DNA from: a virus | Direction: 5' to 3' (one strand) | Length of the DNA stretch: 31,964 nt | IMG/VR virus record: IMGVR_UViG_3300005753_000420 | Coordinates: 1-31,964 of that record | Shown here: positions 6,573 to 20,555 of the stretch, piece by piece | How the letters are laid out: each line of letters starts with the position of its first letter | Position numbering within the stretch: position 1 is the first letter of the stretch | Position numbers and translations under genes: made by a program | The notes under the pieces: model-generated | Databases searched by the model: none | What the model was told of the DNA's origin: nothing | The model's input: the letters and a program-made list of their open reading frames with translations, nothing else

Positions 6573-8490
6573 ATCCATTGATAAAAAAATAGCAGGTATT
6601 AGTCGCTATGCATTTGGTGAAGGGTTATTGCCTGATGAGCCGCTTGATGTCGATGACTATGCCGATAAGTATCGTAAATTATCTGAAAAATCCAGTCCTG
6701 AGCCAGGGCAGTGGAAAACCAGTCGTGTACCGTTTGTGCGTGAAATAATGAAAGCACTGTCAACATCAAGTGATGTGCAAGATGTATCGCTAATGAAAGG
6801 AACACAAATTTCTGGCACAGAAACAGGGAATAACTTTTTTTGCTACGTTGTTGATCATTCACCAGGGCCAATGATGATAGTGCAACCAACACTCGATATG
6901 GCTAAACGCTATAGTCGTCAACGGCTCACGCCCATGATTGCTGATATGCCGAGTTTGTCTGAAAAAATCGCCGATTCTAAATCCCGTGATGGTGGTAATA
7001 CATTACTCGAAAAAAACTTCATGGGAGGTTACTTGGTTATCACAGGGGCAAATAGCTCGACAGGATTGCGTTCGATGCCAGTGCGCTATTTATTTATGGA
7101 TGAAACGGATACTTATCCTTTTGACCTTGATAATGAGGGCGATCCTGAGCAATTGGCAATTAAAAGAACGCAGAATTTTAGCCGAAAAAAAATATTAAGA
7201 GTATCCACGCCAACGATTGACGGTATGTCGCGGATCCAAAAGGCGTTTAAAAGAGGCGATCAGCGTTATTATCATGTGCCATGTCCGCACTGTGGTGGTG
7301 ACCAGAAGCTAGTTTGGAAAAATATTAAATGGAATAAAGCATTGCCACGGAATGAACAACCTGACTCCGTTTTTTATGAGTGCATGCATTGTCATCAGCC
7401 GATTCAGGAACATCATAAAACAGCGATGCTTGATGCGGGACGATGGATTGCTGAAAATCCTGATGTGTCGCAATATCGACGTAGTTATCACATTAGTTCG
7501 CTTTATTCGCCGTTGGGTTGGTATAGCTGGCGTGAAGCAGTGGAAGATTGGCTGAATGCTAAAAATGATGTTGAGCTACTGAAGACATTTACAAACACGG
7601 TGCTTGCTGAGGTTTGGAAAGAATCGGTGAATGATGTTGAAGCCAAGATGCTGCAAGGCAAGGCGGAACCTTATGAGATGGGTATTGTGCCACAAGGTGG
7701 TTTAATCTTATTTTCAGGGTGTGATACACAAGATGATCGACTTGAAAGCTATGTTTATGCTTTCGGGCGTGGTGAAGAGGCGTGGCTTATTGATTATGAG
7801 GTTTTCCTTGGTGATCCTAGTATTCCTGAGACCGAACCTGATTCGCCTTGGACGGAAATGAAGGAATGGTTGATAAAGCCGTGGCTCCATGCTTCAGGTG
7901 CTTATTTAACAGTGGATTGCTCATTAGTTGACTCAGGTGGACACTACACACATGACGTATATAAGTTTTGTCGTGATAACAAACATCTTGGTTTTATAGC
8001 GGGGAAGGGTGCTTCACAGCGCAATAAACCTATCATTAATCGCCCAAGTAAAGTCGATATTGATTGGCGTGGACGTTTGATTAAGCGTGGGCTTGATCTT
8101 TACCAAGTCGGTACCGATACTGCAAAAAGTATGATTTATTCGCGTTTTTTGCGTGATAAAGGTGGTGCTGGTGCTATTCATTATCCTGATGCCTTGCCGT
8201 TAGAGATATTTGAGCAATTAACCTCAGAAAAGTTAGTAAGACGTTATAAAAAAGGTTTTGCTATCTATGAATGGGTTAAAAACTCAGCCGCTCGCAATGA
8301 AGCACTAGATTGTACGGTTTATATGTTTGCAGCCGCACAGAAAAAAGGTGTACATCGTTGGAGCAATAAACGCTGGGATGAGTTAGAGGCAAAAGTCCAG
8401 TCAGTAATGGGTGATTTGTTTGCGCCTAGGATTTCTGCAAAGAAAGCTACTCAGTCTAATAATTTTGGGGAATCAAAAGGATCATGGTAG
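6565..8490 (+). CDS. Terminase large subunit, lambda gpA family
   Basis: The 641-residue product is the packaging motor and nuclease of the lambda gpA (GpA) type. The family N-terminus (DDYADKYRKL, PGQWKTSRVPFVREIM) leads to the degenerate Walker A-like segment KGTQISGTETG at 78-88 and Walker B YLFMDETD with D179 and E180. A Cys pair CPHC...CMHC lies in the middle, and the C-terminal nuclease part begins near LFSGCDTQDDRLE. ATG 6565 is chosen because it overlaps the Nu1 stop and gives the same length as lambda gpA; the reading frame is open upstream to 6502, but that extension has no family similarity. No frameshift or missing segment is apparent. Confidence 0.95.
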   Translation: MGKSIDKKIAGISRYAFGEGLLPDEPLDVDDYADKYRKLSEKSSPEPGQWKTSRVPFVREIMKALSTSSDVQDVSLMKGTQISGTETGNNFFCYVVDHSPGPMMIVQPTLDMAKRYSRQRLTPMIADMPSLSEKIADSKSRDGGNTLLEKNFMGGYLVITGANSSTGLRSMPVRYLFMDETDTYPFDLDNEGDPEQLAIKRTQNFSRKKILRVSTPTIDGMSRIQKAFKRGDQRYYHVPCPHCGGDQKLVWKNIKWNKALPRNEQPDSVFYECMHCHQPIQEHHKTAMLDAGRWIAENPDVSQYRRSYHISSLYSPLGWYSWREAVEDWLNAKNDVELLKTFTNTVLAEVWKESVNDVEAKMLQGKAEPYEMGIVPQGGLILFSGCDTQDDRLESYVYAFGRGEEAWLIDYEVFLGDPSIPETEPDSPWTEMKEWLIKPWLHASGAYLTVDCSLVDSGGHYTHDVYKFCRDNKHLGFIAGKGASQRNKPIINRPSKVDIDWRGRLIKRGLDLYQVGTDTAKSMIYSRFLRDKGGAGAIHYPDALPLEIFEQLTSEKLVRRYKKGFAIYEWVKNSAARNEALDCTVYMFAAAQKKGVHRWSNKRWDELEAKVQSVMGDLFAPRISAKKATQSNNFGESKGSW

Positions 8491-8795
8491 ACAAAAGAAA
8501 CGCACAGCAACAGGACAGCTTTGTCGCTTTTATTGCCTCTTTAGAAGACGATCTTGCTGTGCATCAGAATGGCATTATCAAAGACATGTCACGTCATTTG
8601 TCTAAATCGTCGATTGAATTTGTGTTGGATCGTATTCAAACAGAGTATGGCGCATCGAGTCCGTACATTCATAGTCCAGCTCCTAATCGACGTAAAAATG
8701 TGTTGAAAATTTATAATGAAACCGATTGGTCGGTATCGCGTATTGCGGCTCATTTTAATATGTCAGAGCGGCAGGTTTATAATATTGTGAGATGA
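8484..8795 (+). CDS. Mor/C-like transcription activator candidate
   Basis: The 103-residue product overlaps the terminase stop (ATGGTAG), with AAAAGG at 8475-8480 upstream. Its C-terminal third (NRRKNVLKIYNETDWSVSRI then AAHFNMSERQVYNIVR) matches the layout of the helix-turn-helix of the Mu Mor/C family, where an R-N-x-x-I segment precedes the recognition helices. The N-terminal half (DSFVAFIASLEDDLAVHQ) fits the family's helical dimerisation part only loosely. Mor and C activate middle and late promoters with poor -35 boxes. The gene lies directly upstream of the 161-bp gap with a promoter candidate and the first copy of a repeated dyad, so it may control the head and tail operon. The family match is fair, the target inferred. 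Confidence 0.6.
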   Translation: MVDKRNAQQQDSFVAFIASLEDDLAVHQNGIIKDMSRHLSKSSIEFVLDRIQTEYGASSPYIHSPAPNRRKNVLKIYNETDWSVSRIAAHFNMSERQVYNIVR

Positions 8796-8847: not shown

Positions 8848-8902
8848 TAAACAGCTTTTTCAATAAGTTTTTTTTTGCCTAATTTTCTTCAATAGTAATA
8901 GT

Positions 8903-8931
8903 AAATTGAAATTTCTCCCCTAGAAATTTCA
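8903..8931. repeat. Repeated dyad, copy 1 (upstream of connector gene)
   Basis: TGAAATTTCT (8907-8916) and AGAAATTTCA (8922-8931) form a perfect 10-bp inverted repeat around CCCCT. The 29-nt block is 27/29 identical to 11024-11052. It ends 25 nt before the ATG at 8957, which has no recognisable Shine-Dalgarno. No T-run follows, so it is not a terminator. It may be an operator or an RNA stem-loop. Confidence 0.85.
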
Positions 8932-8956
8932 GTAAACTTTATGCTCATAATTCGCC

Positions 8957-9232
8957 ATGAGCCAAAATAATCCTTTTATATACACAGAAAGTCCCTCAGC
9001 CCATGAGCGCACGCCGCAACAATGGGTGGATTTTTATCTAAATATTGAAAATGAAGTCGCGCAGGGGAAGGAATTCCGCTCTGATGTGCTGAATTATAGT
9101 GTTGTGATGGACGACCTTGATGCAATCCGTAAAGCGCGTAGAGAATGGCAGCGTGTTGTGCAAAAGACGGCTAAGTGTGGTGGTCGGCAGATCGGTGGAT
9201 TGAATTACAAAGTGGCGGATCTGTCTCGATGA
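8957..9232 (+). CDS. Small head-tail connector protein (gpW / DUF6148-like)
   Basis: The 91-residue protein has the pattern of small connector proteins found between terminase and portal: a helix with a WVDFYLNIENEVAQGKE core, a short hairpin (SDVLNYSVV) and a second helix DLDAIRKARREWQRVVQ with a basic glycine-rich tail. Lambda gpW occupies the same slot and plugs the portal before tail joining. The resemblance is to pattern and position; identity is not certain. The stop overlaps the portal start (ATGA). The start codon has no Shine-Dalgarno and follows the first repeated dyad. The codons for NNPF share AATAATCCTTT with the start of the protease-capsid gene at 11079. Confidence 0.6.
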   Translation: MSQNNPFIYTESPSAHERTPQQWVDFYLNIENEVAQGKEFRSDVLNYSVVMDDLDAIRKARREWQRVVQKTAKCGGRQIGGLNYKVADLSR

Positions 9233-10746
9233 AAAAACCACTAAAAATGAATAGGCTGGATAAGGTCATTGGTTATTTTTCGCCGCAATTGGGCTTAAAA
9301 CGGCTTGCTAATCGGCAACGGCTGACTAATTACTATGATGCTGCTAAGCCATCGCTAGATCGTAAGCCACGTACTGATCGCGGCTCTGGTGATGCGATGG
9401 TTGCGATGGCGGGGGATCGTTTGCGTGTCATGGCTCGCGATCTTGAAAACAATCATGATCTTGCTAAAGGCGTACTTGATGTATTGGTTAATAAAACAGT
9501 CGGCAGCGAAATACGTTATGAGCCGCAGGTGTTGGGGGCTGATGGTGAGCTGCATGATGAATTTAATGAATTATTACTAGATCGGCATCAACGATGGTCA
9601 CTAGCACCTGATGTCACGCGTGAAATGTCGCGCTCTGAAATGGAACGGCTCTATGCACGCACATGGTTTCGCGACGGTGAAGCCTTTAAAATTTACCATA
9701 TGGGTAAAGTACCTCATTTAAAACACCATTTTGGCAGTGATACGCCGCTTTCTGTTGATGTTTTTGAGCCTGATTTATGCCCTTTATACCTGAATAATGA
9801 GCATAAAAATATTATTCAGGGAGTTGAAAAGGATCGTTGGGGCTGTCCTACCGCTTATTATTTTTATCCCCACCATCCTGGTCAACCACGTTCGGCTATT
9901 TTTGCTGAAACGCAGTATAAAAAGGTTGGTGCTGAGTATGTTAATCATCTGAAAAACGTTACACGCTTGCGGCAAACGCGTGGAGTGTCTGTATTTCATA
10001 GCATTATGCTTCGACTTGATGATCTGAAAGATTATGAAGAAGCTGAACGGATTGCAGCGCGGATTGCTGCAAAAATGGTGATGTATGTCCGTAAAGGCGC
10101 GCCTGATATGTACGGCGATGATCAATTTAAAGATGAACAGCGTGAGCGGCAGCATTATGAAAATGGCATGACGATCATGGATATGTTACCTGGGGAGGAA
10201 ATTGGGGCTTTTGATACAAACCGTCCTAACACAAACCTTGAGACGTTTCGTAATGCGATGTTGAAAGCCGTTGCAGCAGGATCTGGCACGTCGTACAGCT
10301 CTATATCACGCAGTTACGATGGAACGTATTCTGCTCAACGGCAAGAACTGGTAGAGCAGCAAGAAAACTATTCTGTGTTGCAGGATATTTTTATTAATCA
10401 TTCGTGTCGTCCTGATTTTAGACGTTTTATTGATATGACGTTGTTAGCAGGCGATAAGGATTTATTGCGTTTATTGCCTGAAATTGATCGGCGGACACTT
10501 TACGATCTTGAGTGCTATGGCGCTGTGATGCCGTGGGTTGATCCCGATAAAGAAACGAAAGGGATCGAGCGGAATCTTGACAATAATTTAATGAGTGAGT
10601 CGGAGGCTATTCGTAAAAGAGGCAAGAATCCGATCACTGTTTATAAGCAGATAGCGCGTGATCAGCGTTTGCGTGAAAAGCTATCTATACCTGATAGAGC
10701 AACGAAAAAGGAGAGTATTAATGGACAACCAGCACAAGAAGATTAA
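9229..10746 (+). CDS. Portal protein, lambda gpB family
   Basis: The 505-residue product is a lambda-type portal. Recognisable segments are the N-terminal YYDAAKPSLDRKPR, the SGDAMVAMAGDRLRVMARDL block, the ENNHDLAKGVLDVLVNKTVG helix, WFRDGEAFKIY, and the conserved C-terminal region with PGEEIGAFDTNRPNTN and SGTSYSSISRSYDGTYSAQR. It forms the dodecameric ring at the head vertex through which DNA is packaged and ejected. ATG 9229 is favoured because it overlaps the preceding stop; the frame extends upstream to 9175 without similarity. The last 26 nt overlap the Tad2-like gene. The size is close to lambda gpB (533). Confidence 0.94.
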   Translation: MKKPLKMNRLDKVIGYFSPQLGLKRLANRQRLTNYYDAAKPSLDRKPRTDRGSGDAMVAMAGDRLRVMARDLENNHDLAKGVLDVLVNKTVGSEIRYEPQVLGADGELHDEFNELLLDRHQRWSLAPDVTREMSRSEMERLYARTWFRDGEAFKIYHMGKVPHLKHHFGSDTPLSVDVFEPDLCPLYLNNEHKNIIQGVEKDRWGCPTAYYFYPHHPGQPRSAIFAETQYKKVGAEYVNHLKNVTRLRQTRGVSVFHSIMLRLDDLKDYEEAERIAARIAAKMVMYVRKGAPDMYGDDQFKDEQRERQHYENGMTIMDMLPGEEIGAFDTNRPNTNLETFRNAMLKAVAAGSGTSYSSISRSYDGTYSAQRQELVEQQENYSVLQDIFINHSCRPDFRRFIDMTLLAGDKDLLRLLPEIDRRTLYDLECYGAVMPWVDPDKETKGIERNLDNNLMSESEAIRKRGKNPITVYKQIARDQRLREKLSIPDRATKKESINGQPAQED

Positions 10747-11002
10747 CAAAATGAGTTTTTCCGAAGCCTTGGAAATAATAAAAGAGGGCGGACTAGTAAG
10801 AAGATCAGGTTGGAATGGAAAAGGAATGCATGTATATCTTGAGAATATGTTTAGAAAAATTACAAATCACCCTAGTTCTAAAAATGATGGACATAGGGTA
10901 TACGAGCCTGTTGTGGTTTTACTAAACGCTAGAGGTAATCATCAGGCGGGTTGGGTTTGTTCTCAAGAAGATATGTTGGCAAATGATTGGGAAGTTGCAT
11001 AA
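10721..11002 (+). CDS. DUF2829 protein, Tad2-like (candidate anti-Thoeris)
   Basis: The 93-residue product shows the DUF2829 signature: FSEALEIIKEGGLVRRSGWN at about 13-32, GKGMHVYLE, a central EPVVVLLNARG strand pair, and the ending GWVCSQEDMLANDWEV at 77-92. Tad2, a member of this family, sequesters the signalling molecule 1''-3' gcADPR made by the Thoeris defence system; whether this homologue does so is inference. ATG 10721 follows AAGGAG (10708-10713) by 7 nt, so the gene starts inside the portal ORF. Its codons (many AGA, GGA, ATA) differ from the neighbouring CGT-rich head genes, suggesting recent acquisition as a moron. The second copy of the repeated dyad lies 21 nt after its stop. 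Confidence 0.82.
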   Translation: MDNQHKKINKMSFSEALEIIKEGGLVRRSGWNGKGMHVYLENMFRKITNHPSSKNDGHRVYEPVVVLLNARGNHQAGWVCSQEDMLANDWEVA

Positions 11003-13217: not shown

Positions 13218-13541
13218 ATGGCTAACAATTTTGTACAGATAGGGACTGCAATGGCCTATATCAATCTGGGATCAGAGGATATTTTTAGTGGCGATGTTGT
13301 GCCATTGGAATCAAAAATAGGCATTGCTAAAACGGATATACCCGTTGGTGACATGGGTTCTGTTGCCGTTGGTGGAGTTTGGAATTTACCAAAAAGCTCA
13401 GGCATTTTAAAGCAAGGTCAATTGGTGTACTGGAAAGAGGGGCAGATTGTTGTTGCCAATTCTGACGGTGCAACGCCTTCAGGTTATGCGTGGGATGTTG
13501 CAGCAGCGACTGATGATATGGCCAATATCAAGATTGATTAA
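13218..13541 (+). CDS. Capsid cement/decoration protein, DUF2190 family
   Basis: The 107-residue product has the DUF2190 pattern: short N-terminal strand, SGDVVPLESKIGIAKTDIPVGDMGSVAVGGVWNLPK across the middle in several recognisable blocks, then QLVYWKEGQIV and a Gly/Ala-rich end (GYAWDVAAATDD). Proteins of this family sit on the outside of the capsid and stabilise it. It directly follows the capsid gene with a 3-nt gap and has AGGGAAG about 7 nt upstream of the ATG, consistent with strong expression alongside the capsid. Confidence 0.88.
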   Translation: MANNFVQIGTAMAYINLGSEDIFSGDVVPLESKIGIAKTDIPVGDMGSVAVGGVWNLPKSSGILKQGQLVYWKEGQIVVANSDGATPSGYAWDVAAATDDMANIKID

Positions 13542-19820: not shown

Positions 19821-20555
19821 ATGAATAAAACAACCTACACATTCAATGTAAATCAAGCGTTATTGTTGCCTGAAACAATAACGCTTGATGAGAATGTGCG
19901 TATAGAGGTTTATATCAATGGCTCTCGTTTATCAGCACTGGATAATATTCACAGACAGGGCCATGTTGTTGTATTGCCTTTTTATCATCGGCATTCTGAT
20001 GATGTTATTGAAATTGACGTTTATGATGCTGTGGTTGTTCCAGAGCAGGAGACGGGTGATGACACTAGTACGGGGAATACTGATGCACCTGCGAATGATT
20101 TAACGAATGATACCGTTAGTGATATTGCTGTTTCTGTCGCTGTCGCTGAAAATAGTGATAACAACGCAATATTAGTTACCAAACAACAGCAAGGCATGAA
20201 TAGCCTCAATGGTCACATTATGCGTGGAATTGATCATTTAGAACAATCAGTCAGTGATATTTTATTAACGCCATTGGGAAGCCGTGTGATGCGGCGCAAT
20301 TATGGCAGTAATCTGTATTTACTGAAGGATCAGCGAATGACTTCATCAAATATCATGCGAATTTATTCCGCCGTTGCTGAAGCATTGCAGCTCTGGGAGC
20401 CGCGCATTTTGCTTGATCGGGTGTTTATTGATGAACATGATGTTTCAGAAGGGCGTTTAATTGTTGGATTGCAGTGGCGAATAGCCGCGTTTTATAGTGA
20501 TCAATTTCCCGTTAATGATGAGTGTTTCACACAGCGATTGCAGGTAGCATCATGA
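19821..20555 (+). CDS. Baseplate wedge protein W (gp25-like) with N-terminal extension
   Basis: The 244-residue product is about twice the length of P2 gpW (115). Residues ~128-244 are the canonical gpW/T4 gp25 domain: IMRGIDHLEQSVSDILLTPL then GSRVMRRNYGSNLYLLKD, and GRLIVGLQWRIA. Residues 1-75 form a beta module (TYTFNVNQALLLPETITLDE, VEVYINGSRL-like core) resembling the C-terminal domain of the two upstream structural proteins. An acidic Asp/Thr-rich linker joins the parts. The 5' end carries a perfect 16-bp inverted repeat. The stop overlaps gpJ (ATGA). The core function, joining the sheath and baseplate wedge, is well established for the family. Confidence 0.9.
   Translation: MNKTTYTFNVNQALLLPETITLDENVRIEVYINGSRLSALDNIHRQGHVVVLPFYHRHSDDVIEIDVYDAVVVPEQETGDDTSTGNTDAPANDLTNDTVSDIAVSVAVAENSDNNAILVTKQQQGMNSLNGHIMRGIDHLEQSVSDILLTPLGSRVMRRNYGSNLYLLKDQRMTSSNIMRIYSAVAEALQLWEPRILLDRVFIDEHDVSEGRLIVGLQWRIAAFYSDQFPVNDECFTQRLQVAS
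19852..19889. repeat. Perfect 16-bp inverted repeat inside the 5' end of gpW
   Basis: ATCAAGCGTTATTGTT (19852-19867) and AACAATAACGCTTGAT (19874-19889) are exact reverse complements around the 6-nt loop GCCTGA. The repeat covers codons 11-23 of the gpW-like ORF. In RNA it would form a long uninterrupted hairpin about 30 nt after the start codon. No T-run follows it. Confidence 0.92.

What the first reader, a model, noticed from the sequence alone, without database searches (positions are those of the whole stretch)
10721..11002. Tad2-like (DUF2829) anti-defence candidate placed between portal and capsid genes
The protein carries the DUF2829 signature, including GWN and the SQEDMLANDW ending. 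Tad2 members bind the Thoeris signal 1''-3' gcADPR. Here the gene starts inside the portal ORF, has a textbook Shine-Dalgarno, different codon habits from its neighbours and is followed by a repeated dyad. An anti-defence gene inside the late head operon would be made late, unless it has its own promoter, which is unexpected for immune evasion. It may instead protect the lysogen or a step during assembly.
Basis: partly seen in the sequence, partly recalled or inferred. Interest (0 to 1): 0.66.

Follow-up and report, generated by a model that had tools for sequence, protein, structure and literature searches.

The report
Phage Tad2 immune-signal sponge before capsid
A phage gene that most likely makes a small protein able to soak up a bacterial alarm molecule has been slotted into the virus's shell-building genes, directly ahead of the shell-protein gene, whose product is itself known to set off that alarm in some bacteria.

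Summary
The 93-residue product of 10721-11002(+) is a clear member of Pfam PF11195 (Tad2-like, DUF2829; 80 bits, cut-off 25). It matches solved Tad2 chains by sequence, and the 24 best structural matches of its predicted model are all Tad2 entries. All ten positions invariant in my alignment of 57 are kept. It overlaps the portal gene by 26 nt and has the strongest ribosome site of the starts tested. A 29-nt dyad follows it, a near copy of one upstream of gpW. 'Different codon habits' is weak (arginine codons only).

The gene is cargo. In 15 relatives and cultured phages with this head module the portal and protease-capsid genes abut. Two close relatives with 95% identical portals carry unrelated cargo there (a 147-aa ORF; a type IV restriction enzyme plus Bro-N). 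Tad2 also sits in head gene clusters of other phages.

Most likely it is a late-made sponge for a TIR-made ADP-ribose signal. Late timing is not a paradox: Thoeris can be triggered by the major capsid protein, and this gene precedes the capsid gene. The ligand and activity are untested. New member of a known kind; the placement is the interesting part.

The parts
10721..11002 (+). tad2-like gene, 93 aa; Tad2 domain = residues 11-92 (nt 10751-10996)
   Evidence: PF11195 80.2 bits; Tad2 PDB chains by phmmer, best E 6e-14; AlphaFold2 pLDDT 90; all 24 Foldseek PDB hits with E<=0.001 are Tad2-family entries
10707..10715 (+). Shine-Dalgarno AAAAGGAGA, 6 nt before the tad2 ATG, inside the last codons of the portal gene
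   Evidence: computed -8.7 kcal/mol, strongest of the starts tested
9229..10746 (+). portal protein gene (505 aa, lambda family); its 3' end holds the tad2 ribosome site and start
   Evidence: PF05136 269.9 bits; 55-60% identical to portals of L009-L014
11024..11052 (.). second copy of the head-operon dyad (GAAATTTC-N7-GAAATTTC core), between tad2 and the capsid gene
   Evidence: best local alignment of the two gaps scores 48 against at most 26 in shuffles
8903..8931 (.). first copy of the dyad, just upstream of the gpW-position gene; conserved in relatives L012, L013 and, decayed, L014
11067..13214 (+). ClpP-type protease fused to major capsid protein (start 11067 or 11079); no good SD in this phage
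   Evidence: CLP_protease + Phage_capsid_4; SD -0.9 or -2.2 kcal/mol here against -5.9 to -6.0 in L012-L014
8957..9232 (+). small gene in the gpW (head-tail joining) position, no SD, preceded by the dyad
   Evidence: position between terL and portal as in cultured relatives; no Pfam match; SD +1.8 kcal/mol
13218..13541 (+). head decoration/cement protein gene
   Evidence: PF09956 Phage_cement_2, 72.6 bits

Best explanation
10721-11002 encodes a Tad2-family sponge: a small protein that by homology forms a tetramer and binds, without degrading, an ADP-ribose-derived signal made by a host TIR enzyme (Thoeris; 1''-3' gcADPR or His-ADPR), so that the suicide effector is not switched on. It is an extra gene (cargo, or moron) inserted at a variable site between portal and capsid genes, translated from a strong ribosome site inside the end of the portal gene on the late head transcript. 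Because TIR sensors of this kind can be triggered by the capsid or portal protein, the sponge appears together with, and just upstream of, the protein that would raise the alarm. Shown here: family, fold, insertion, ribosome site, absence of a consensus-like own promoter just upstream. Inferred: ligand class, tetramer, late timing, coupling to the trigger.
For: PF11195 match. phmmer matches to SPO1 Tad2, HgmTad2/AcrIIA7, ModTad2 and SptTad2 chains, E 6e-14 to 2.7e-10. R28 G30 W31 N32 G33 W78 S81 D84 D89 W90 invariant across 57 sequences and kept here (partly circular, because the search patterns contained several of them). Predicted fold matches Tad2 complexes with gcADPR, His-ADPR and cADPR. 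The protein is as short as SPO1 and ModTad2 (ADPR-type ligands) and lacks the extra length of HgmTad2 and SptTad2, which bind cGG. Junction empty in L012-L017, L102, L103 and eight cultured phages; different cargo in L009 and L010/L018, whose portals are 95% identical. Capsid protein triggers Thoeris (PMC12578639); portal protein triggers the TIR NADase SpbK (PMC11984713). ThsB-type TIR domains occur in 22 of 185 sampled genomes of the class of Thiothrix, including the Thiothrix genome that carries a related prophage.
Against: No ligand, host or Thoeris system is known for this phage. The family is broad (Thoeris I, Thoeris II, CBASS dinucleotides, a reported anti-Cas9 activity), and sequence cannot settle the target. 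PMC11984713 notes that counter-defence genes are often in operons expressed early. Capsid sensing has been shown for staphylococcal and streptococcal Thoeris, not for the unknown host of this phage. Expression timing is inferred from gene order alone.
Confidence: 0.68

Rival explanations
1. A Tad2-family protein whose main job is to sequester CBASS cyclic dinucleotides (cGG, cGAMP) rather than a Thoeris signal.
For: HgmTad2 and SptTad2 were solved with cGG (titles), and CDN binding by Tad2 is reviewed in PMC12043709. Tad2-family members bind more than one signal.
Against: CDN binding is ascribed to an insertion between strands 2 and 5 (PMC12043709). The window protein (93 aa) is short there, like SPO1 Tad2, which does not bind 3'3'-cGAMP (PMC11722364); the HgmTad2 and SptTad2 chains are 101-104 aa.
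Confidence: 0.12
2. An AcrIIA7-type inhibitor of Cas9 (anti-CRISPR).
For: AcrIIA7 carries DUF2829 (PMC6739104), and the PDB chain 8kbi_A, called both HgmTad2 and AcrIIA7, is a phmmer match (E 4.7e-13).
Against: That same protein was solved with 1',2'-cADPR and cGG (8kbj, 8kbk), so nucleotide binding is the better-documented property. AcrIIA7 homologues occur with many CRISPR subtypes and rarely with type II-A self-targeting (PMC6739104).
Confidence: 0.05
3. A cargo gene that protects the lysogen, or competes with other phages from the prophage state, expressed from its own promoter like a classical moron.
For: The site is variable and in the Thiothrix prophage holds a type IV restriction enzyme on the opposite strand. 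The window has divergent HTH-type regulators at its left end, as in temperate phages.
Against: No promoter-like site just upstream; start and ribosome site lie inside the portal gene, which ties translation to the head transcript; no GC-rich terminator after the gene.
Confidence: 0.1
4. A structural or assembly protein of the head that has adopted the Tad2 fold.
For: Position between portal and capsid genes.
Against: Absent at this junction in 15 relatives with the same head module; family-invariant residues kept; homologues elsewhere lie outside head clusters, among replication or hypothetical genes.
Confidence: 0.03

Closest known systems
SPO1 Tad2 (gp34.65; PDB 8sme, 8smf, 8wje)
   Same: Same family, fold, length class and invariant residues; about 37% identity over 81 aligned residues.
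   Different: Encoded at 127.1 kb of the 132.6-kb SPO1 genome, with no sign of a head-operon setting; neighbours not examined. Ligand known for SPO1 Tad2, not for this one.
ModTad2 (Myroides odoratus prophage; PDB 9eib, 8v3e)
   Same: Short Tad2 protein, similar predicted structure (TM 0.69-0.71 by query length). Binds His-ADPR.
   Different: 34% identity. At the position after the invariant serine ModTad2 has V, whereas this protein has Q like SPO1 and HgmTad2.
HgmTad2 / AcrIIA7 (PDB 8kbi-8kbm)
   Same: Family member, 39% identity, ending SQTDMLANDWVI close to SQEDMLANDWEV here.
   Different: About 10-20 residues longer in the region linked to cyclic-dinucleotide binding.
Tad2 genes in other head clusters (L100, L048, L058, L002, L089)
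   Same: Tad2 lies next to or within the head gene cluster, upstream of the major capsid gene: L100 terL-portal-Tad2-ORF-MCP; L048 portal-minor head-ORF-Tad2-scaffold-MCP; L058 Tad2-scaffold-MCP.
   Different: Unrelated head modules, other neighbours, 37-41% identity to this protein for L048, L058 and L100.
Anti-CRISPR genes among head genes of D3112/JBD-type Pseudomonas phages (from memory, not tested)
   Same: Anti-defence cargo inside the head operon.
   Different: Those have an early acr promoter repressed by Aca through inverted repeats; here the dyad is downstream of the gene and no adjacent aca gene was recognised.

Membership tests
Tad2 / DUF2829 (PF11195) | Profile match above the curated cut-off | tested here: met
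   80.2 bits against 25
Tad2 / DUF2829 (PF11195) | Tad2 fold | tested here: met
   AlphaFold2 pLDDT 90; all 24 PDB matches at E<=0.001 are Tad2-family entries, TM 0.63-0.72 by query length
Tad2 / DUF2829 (PF11195) | Family-invariant residues of the beta1-beta2 loop and of strand beta4 / helix alpha3, the regions lining the gcADPR pocket | tested here: met
   R28 G30 W31 N32 G33 and W78 S81 D84 D89 W90 present; pocket regions after PMC12043709; individual contact residues were not available to me
Tad2 / DUF2829 (PF11195) | Homotetramer with two ligand pockets | not testable with these tools
   Only a monomer was predicted
Tad2 / DUF2829 (PF11195) | Sequesters a TIR-made ADP-ribose signal and restores phage growth on Thoeris cells | not testable with these tools
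   Needs a binding or plaque assay
CDN-binding Tad2 (HgmTad2, SptTad2) | Extra length between strands 2 and 5 | tested here: not met
   About 10-20 residues shorter there than HgmTad2, and 93 aa in all against SptTad2 chains of 101
AcrIIA7 anti-CRISPR | Inhibits Cas9 | not testable with these tools
   Only the shared DUF2829 domain could be checked (PMC6739104)
Cargo (moron) at a variable head-operon site | Gene absent at the same junction in relatives, with unrelated cargo in others | tested here: met
   15 junctions without a gene; L009 and L010/L018 with different cargo, 95% identical portals, similarity resuming 74 nt before the end of the shared capsid-gene start region
Cargo (moron) at a variable head-operon site | Own promoter and terminator (classical moron) | tested here: not met
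   No + strand promoter-like site just upstream, no GC-rich terminator downstream by consensus scan; AT-rich hairpin only

The most novel reading that the evidence does not exclude
Trigger-coupled counter-defence: selection has placed a signal sponge directly ahead of the capsid gene, at the ribosome-site position that the capsid gene occupies in relatives, so that the sponge is made in step with the capsid protein that sets off TIR defence. The recurrence of Tad2 upstream of scaffold/capsid genes in unrelated phages would then be convergence on the same solution.
Probability: 0.25. Interest if true: 0.6.

Novelty: new member of a known kind. Interest (0 to 1): 0.38.

Why it matters
Tad2 sponges are usually thought of as early or accessory genes. 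A member embedded immediately upstream of the capsid gene, together with similar placements in other phages, suggests that the timing of anti-Thoeris proteins may follow the timing of the trigger and not of entry. That is directly testable. The portal-capsid junction of this phage group is also a compact place to look for other defence and counter-defence genes.

Tried and rejected
(1) Own early promoter for tad2: no consensus-like site just upstream. (2) Dyad as a GC-rich intrinsic terminator: AT-rich stem, no T-run on the + strand; not called by the scan. (3) Dyad as a host repeat: no copy with at most one mismatch in 399 sampled genomes of the phylum of Thiothrix, no exact copy in viral contigs. 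(4) Foreign codon usage as proof of recent transfer: overall not unusual. (5) Close relatives of this gene by peptide patterns: only 7 loci at 28-37%; an alignment query then gave 80 loci. (6) Close DNA relatives among cultured phages: none. (7) Enrichment of Tad2 next to head genes: at least nine of about 80 surveyed loci have a head/packaging neighbour, which may be no more than phage gene content predicts; no enrichment claimed. (8) Two primary Tad2 papers that I expected to list contact residues were not held.

Full report
The gene. The ORF at 10721-11002 (+) encodes 93 residues, MDNQHKKINKMSFSEALEIIKEGGLVRRSGWNGKGMHVYLENMFRKITNHPSSKNDGHRVYEPVVVLLNARGNHQAGWVCSQEDMLANDWEVA. Pfam assigns it to PF11195 (Tad2-like; formerly DUF2829) at 80.2 bits against a cut-off of 25. 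phmmer against PDB sequences finds seven distinct chains at E<=1; all were named Tad2, gp34.65 (SPO1 Tad2), AcrIIA7 or inhibitor of type II CRISPR-Cas, with E from 6e-14 to 2.7e-10. A 57-sequence alignment gave an AlphaFold2 monomer with mean pLDDT 90; all 24 PDB structures matched at E<=0.001 are Tad2-family entries, including complexes with gcADPR, cADPR, His-ADPR and cGG. The ten alignment-invariant residues (R28 G30 W31 N32 G33 W78 S81 D84 D89 W90) are present; they lie in the loop after the first strand and in the last strand/helix, regions which PMC12043709 describes as lining the gcADPR pocket. The invariance is partly circular, since the search patterns contained some of these residues. 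The Tad2 domain begins at residue 11, immediately after the portal stop codon; residues 1-9 are encoded by DNA that also encodes the portal C-terminus and its stop.

Which ligand. Characterised members bind gcADPR (SPO1), His-ADPR (the Myroides protein; PMC13299392 and the title of 9eib), or cADPR plus cGG (HgmTad2/AcrIIA7). Dinucleotide binding is ascribed to an insertion between strands 2 and 5 (PMC12043709). The window protein is short there, like SPO1 and ModTad2, and shorter than HgmTad2 by about 10-20 residues. SPO1 Tad2 does not bind 3'3'-cGAMP (PMC11722364). I therefore expect an ADP-ribose-type signal; gcADPR and His-ADPR cannot be told apart here.

The place. The window is a 31,964-base viral contig, an assembly fragment. 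It encodes an HTH-type regulator on the minus strand at its left end, DnaB, a DnaT-like protein, a ParB-N/N4-N6 methylase, GpA terminase, a lambda-family portal, a ClpP-capsid fusion, a cement protein, a contractile-tail sheath and a GH108 lysozyme. The nearest relatives are three metagenomic contigs (L012-L014, portal 59-60% identical) and a Thiothrix eikelboomii prophage (L010/L011/L018) with the contig L009 (55%). In L012-L014 the portal and protease-capsid ORFs overlap by 8 nt with nothing between them. The same direct adjacency (overlap or a short gap) holds in L015-L017, L102 and L103 and in eight cultured phages: Hafnia yong2, Providencia PSTCR8lys, Pseudomonas Solano, Salmonella Fels-1, two Vibrio phages, Escherichia Eeyore and mEp460_4F5. 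In L009 and L010, whose portals are 95% identical, the junction holds entirely different DNA: a 147-aa ORF in one; in the other a minus-strand pair including an Mrr-type type IV restriction enzyme (PADLOC E 2.2e-62; Pfam Mrr_cat), followed by a Bro-N gene. Similarity resumes about 60 nt before the capsid gene's ATGGATACATCAAA start region. The portal-capsid junction is therefore a variable cargo site, and tad2 is this phage's cargo.

How it is expressed. tad2 has the strongest ribosome site of those tested (AAAAGGAGA, -8.7 kcal/mol), placed inside the last codons of the portal gene. In L012-L014 it is the capsid gene that has its site there (-5.9 to -6.0), whereas in the window the capsid gene has none worth the name (-0.9, or -2.2 for the alternative start 11079). 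So tad2 holds the position and translational set-up that the capsid gene has in relatives. No promoter-like site was found just upstream. Between tad2 and the capsid gene lies a 13-bp perfect AT-rich dyad whose 29-nt core is 27/29 identical to one at 8903-8931 upstream of the gpW-position gene. That first dyad is conserved in L012 and L013 and decayed in L014 at the same place, so it is a real element of this head operon. Only the window has the second copy. Both window genes directly behind a dyad lack a good Shine-Dalgarno site. What the element does is unknown.

Timing. PMC12578639 shows that staphylococcal Thoeris is activated by the major head protein itself; prophages lacking the late activator rinA or the capsid gene do not trigger it, and a streptococcal Thoeris also senses capsid proteins. 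PMC11984713 shows a TIR NADase (SpbK) activated by a phage portal protein. A sponge encoded between portal and capsid genes would be made together with such triggers. The same paper notes that counter-defence genes are often early, so both schedules exist. ThsB-type TIR domains are present in 22 of 185 sampled genomes of the class of Thiothrix, including the Thiothrix genome with the related prophage; the host of this phage is unknown.

Is the placement special? In a survey of Tad2 genes from viral contigs, Pfam found head or packaging genes next to Tad2 in at least nine loci: L002 minor capsid, L028 and L045 terminase large subunit, L036 P22-type coat, L042 terminase small subunit, L048 and L058 scaffold, L089 capsid, L100 P22-type portal. 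L100 repeats the window's logic in an unrelated head module (terL-portal-Tad2-ORF-major head), and L048 and L058 have Tad2 directly before scaffold and major head genes. Other Tad2 genes lie elsewhere: before the terminase genes in Curiosium, upstream of a major capsid gene in Vibrio 1.127.O, beside helicase, recombination or hypothetical genes in others. Nine of about 80 is not more than phage gene content might give, so I claim recurrence, not enrichment.

Codon usage. Overall likelihood under the phage's codon table is ordinary (53 of 177 equal-length stretches are as low or lower), but all five arginines after the overlap use AGA/AGG, against 78 of 455 in the other genes. This was noticed after the fact and is weak evidence for recent arrival.

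Verdict. A sound first-stage call: a genuine Tad2-family gene in an unusual, clearly inserted position. The protein family and its mechanism are known. What is new is this member, its cargo site, and the testable suggestion that a capsid-triggered defence is answered by a sponge made from the gene next to the capsid.

Noticed in passing
window 8900-8975; L012 1022-1098; L013 295-369; L014 2078-2155: The leader of the gpW-position gene has two successive predicted hairpins in all four phages: the GAAATTTC dyad, then a second stem of differing sequence that contains or abuts the start codon (GCTCAT/ATGAGC, GTGCGA/TCGCAC, TGCCAT/ATGGCA, TGCCATGAT/ATCATGGCA). The window and L012 lack an evident Shine-Dalgarno site. 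Possibly a structured regulatory leader of the head operon.
   Followed up: partly
L010 7528-11050 (Thiothrix eikelboomii prophage): The same portal-capsid junction carries a minus-strand pair including a 607-aa Mrr-type type IV restriction enzyme, then a Bro-N gene: a defence cargo where the window has a counter-defence cargo.
   Followed up: partly
L009 5590-6033: 147-aa ORF (TTG start) beginning with a hydrophobic, signal-peptide-like stretch at the same junction; no Pfam or PADLOC match.
   Followed up: partly
window 8484-8795: 103-aa HTH protein gene between terL and the gpW-position gene, just before the first dyad; similar genes at the same place in L013 and L014, and a 127-aa ORF in that place in L010. 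A candidate binder of the dyad, untested.
   Followed up: no
L002, L029, L036, L048, L055, L061, L072 and others: In many viral contigs the Tad2 domain is the C-terminal part of an ORF of 160-290 codons, some possibly with a real N-terminal domain; the PHROG families matched (872, 1048) are also longer than the domain.
   Followed up: no
neighbours of Tad2 in the surveyed viral contigs: An Acb2/Tad1-hairpin gene (PF24729) was found once upstream and once downstream of a Tad2 gene, and a second Tad2-like gene once on each side: small anti-signalling clusters.
   Followed up: no
window 19852-19889: Perfect 16-bp inverted repeat (6-nt loop) in the 5' part of the ORF 19821-20555 in the tail region.
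   Followed up: no
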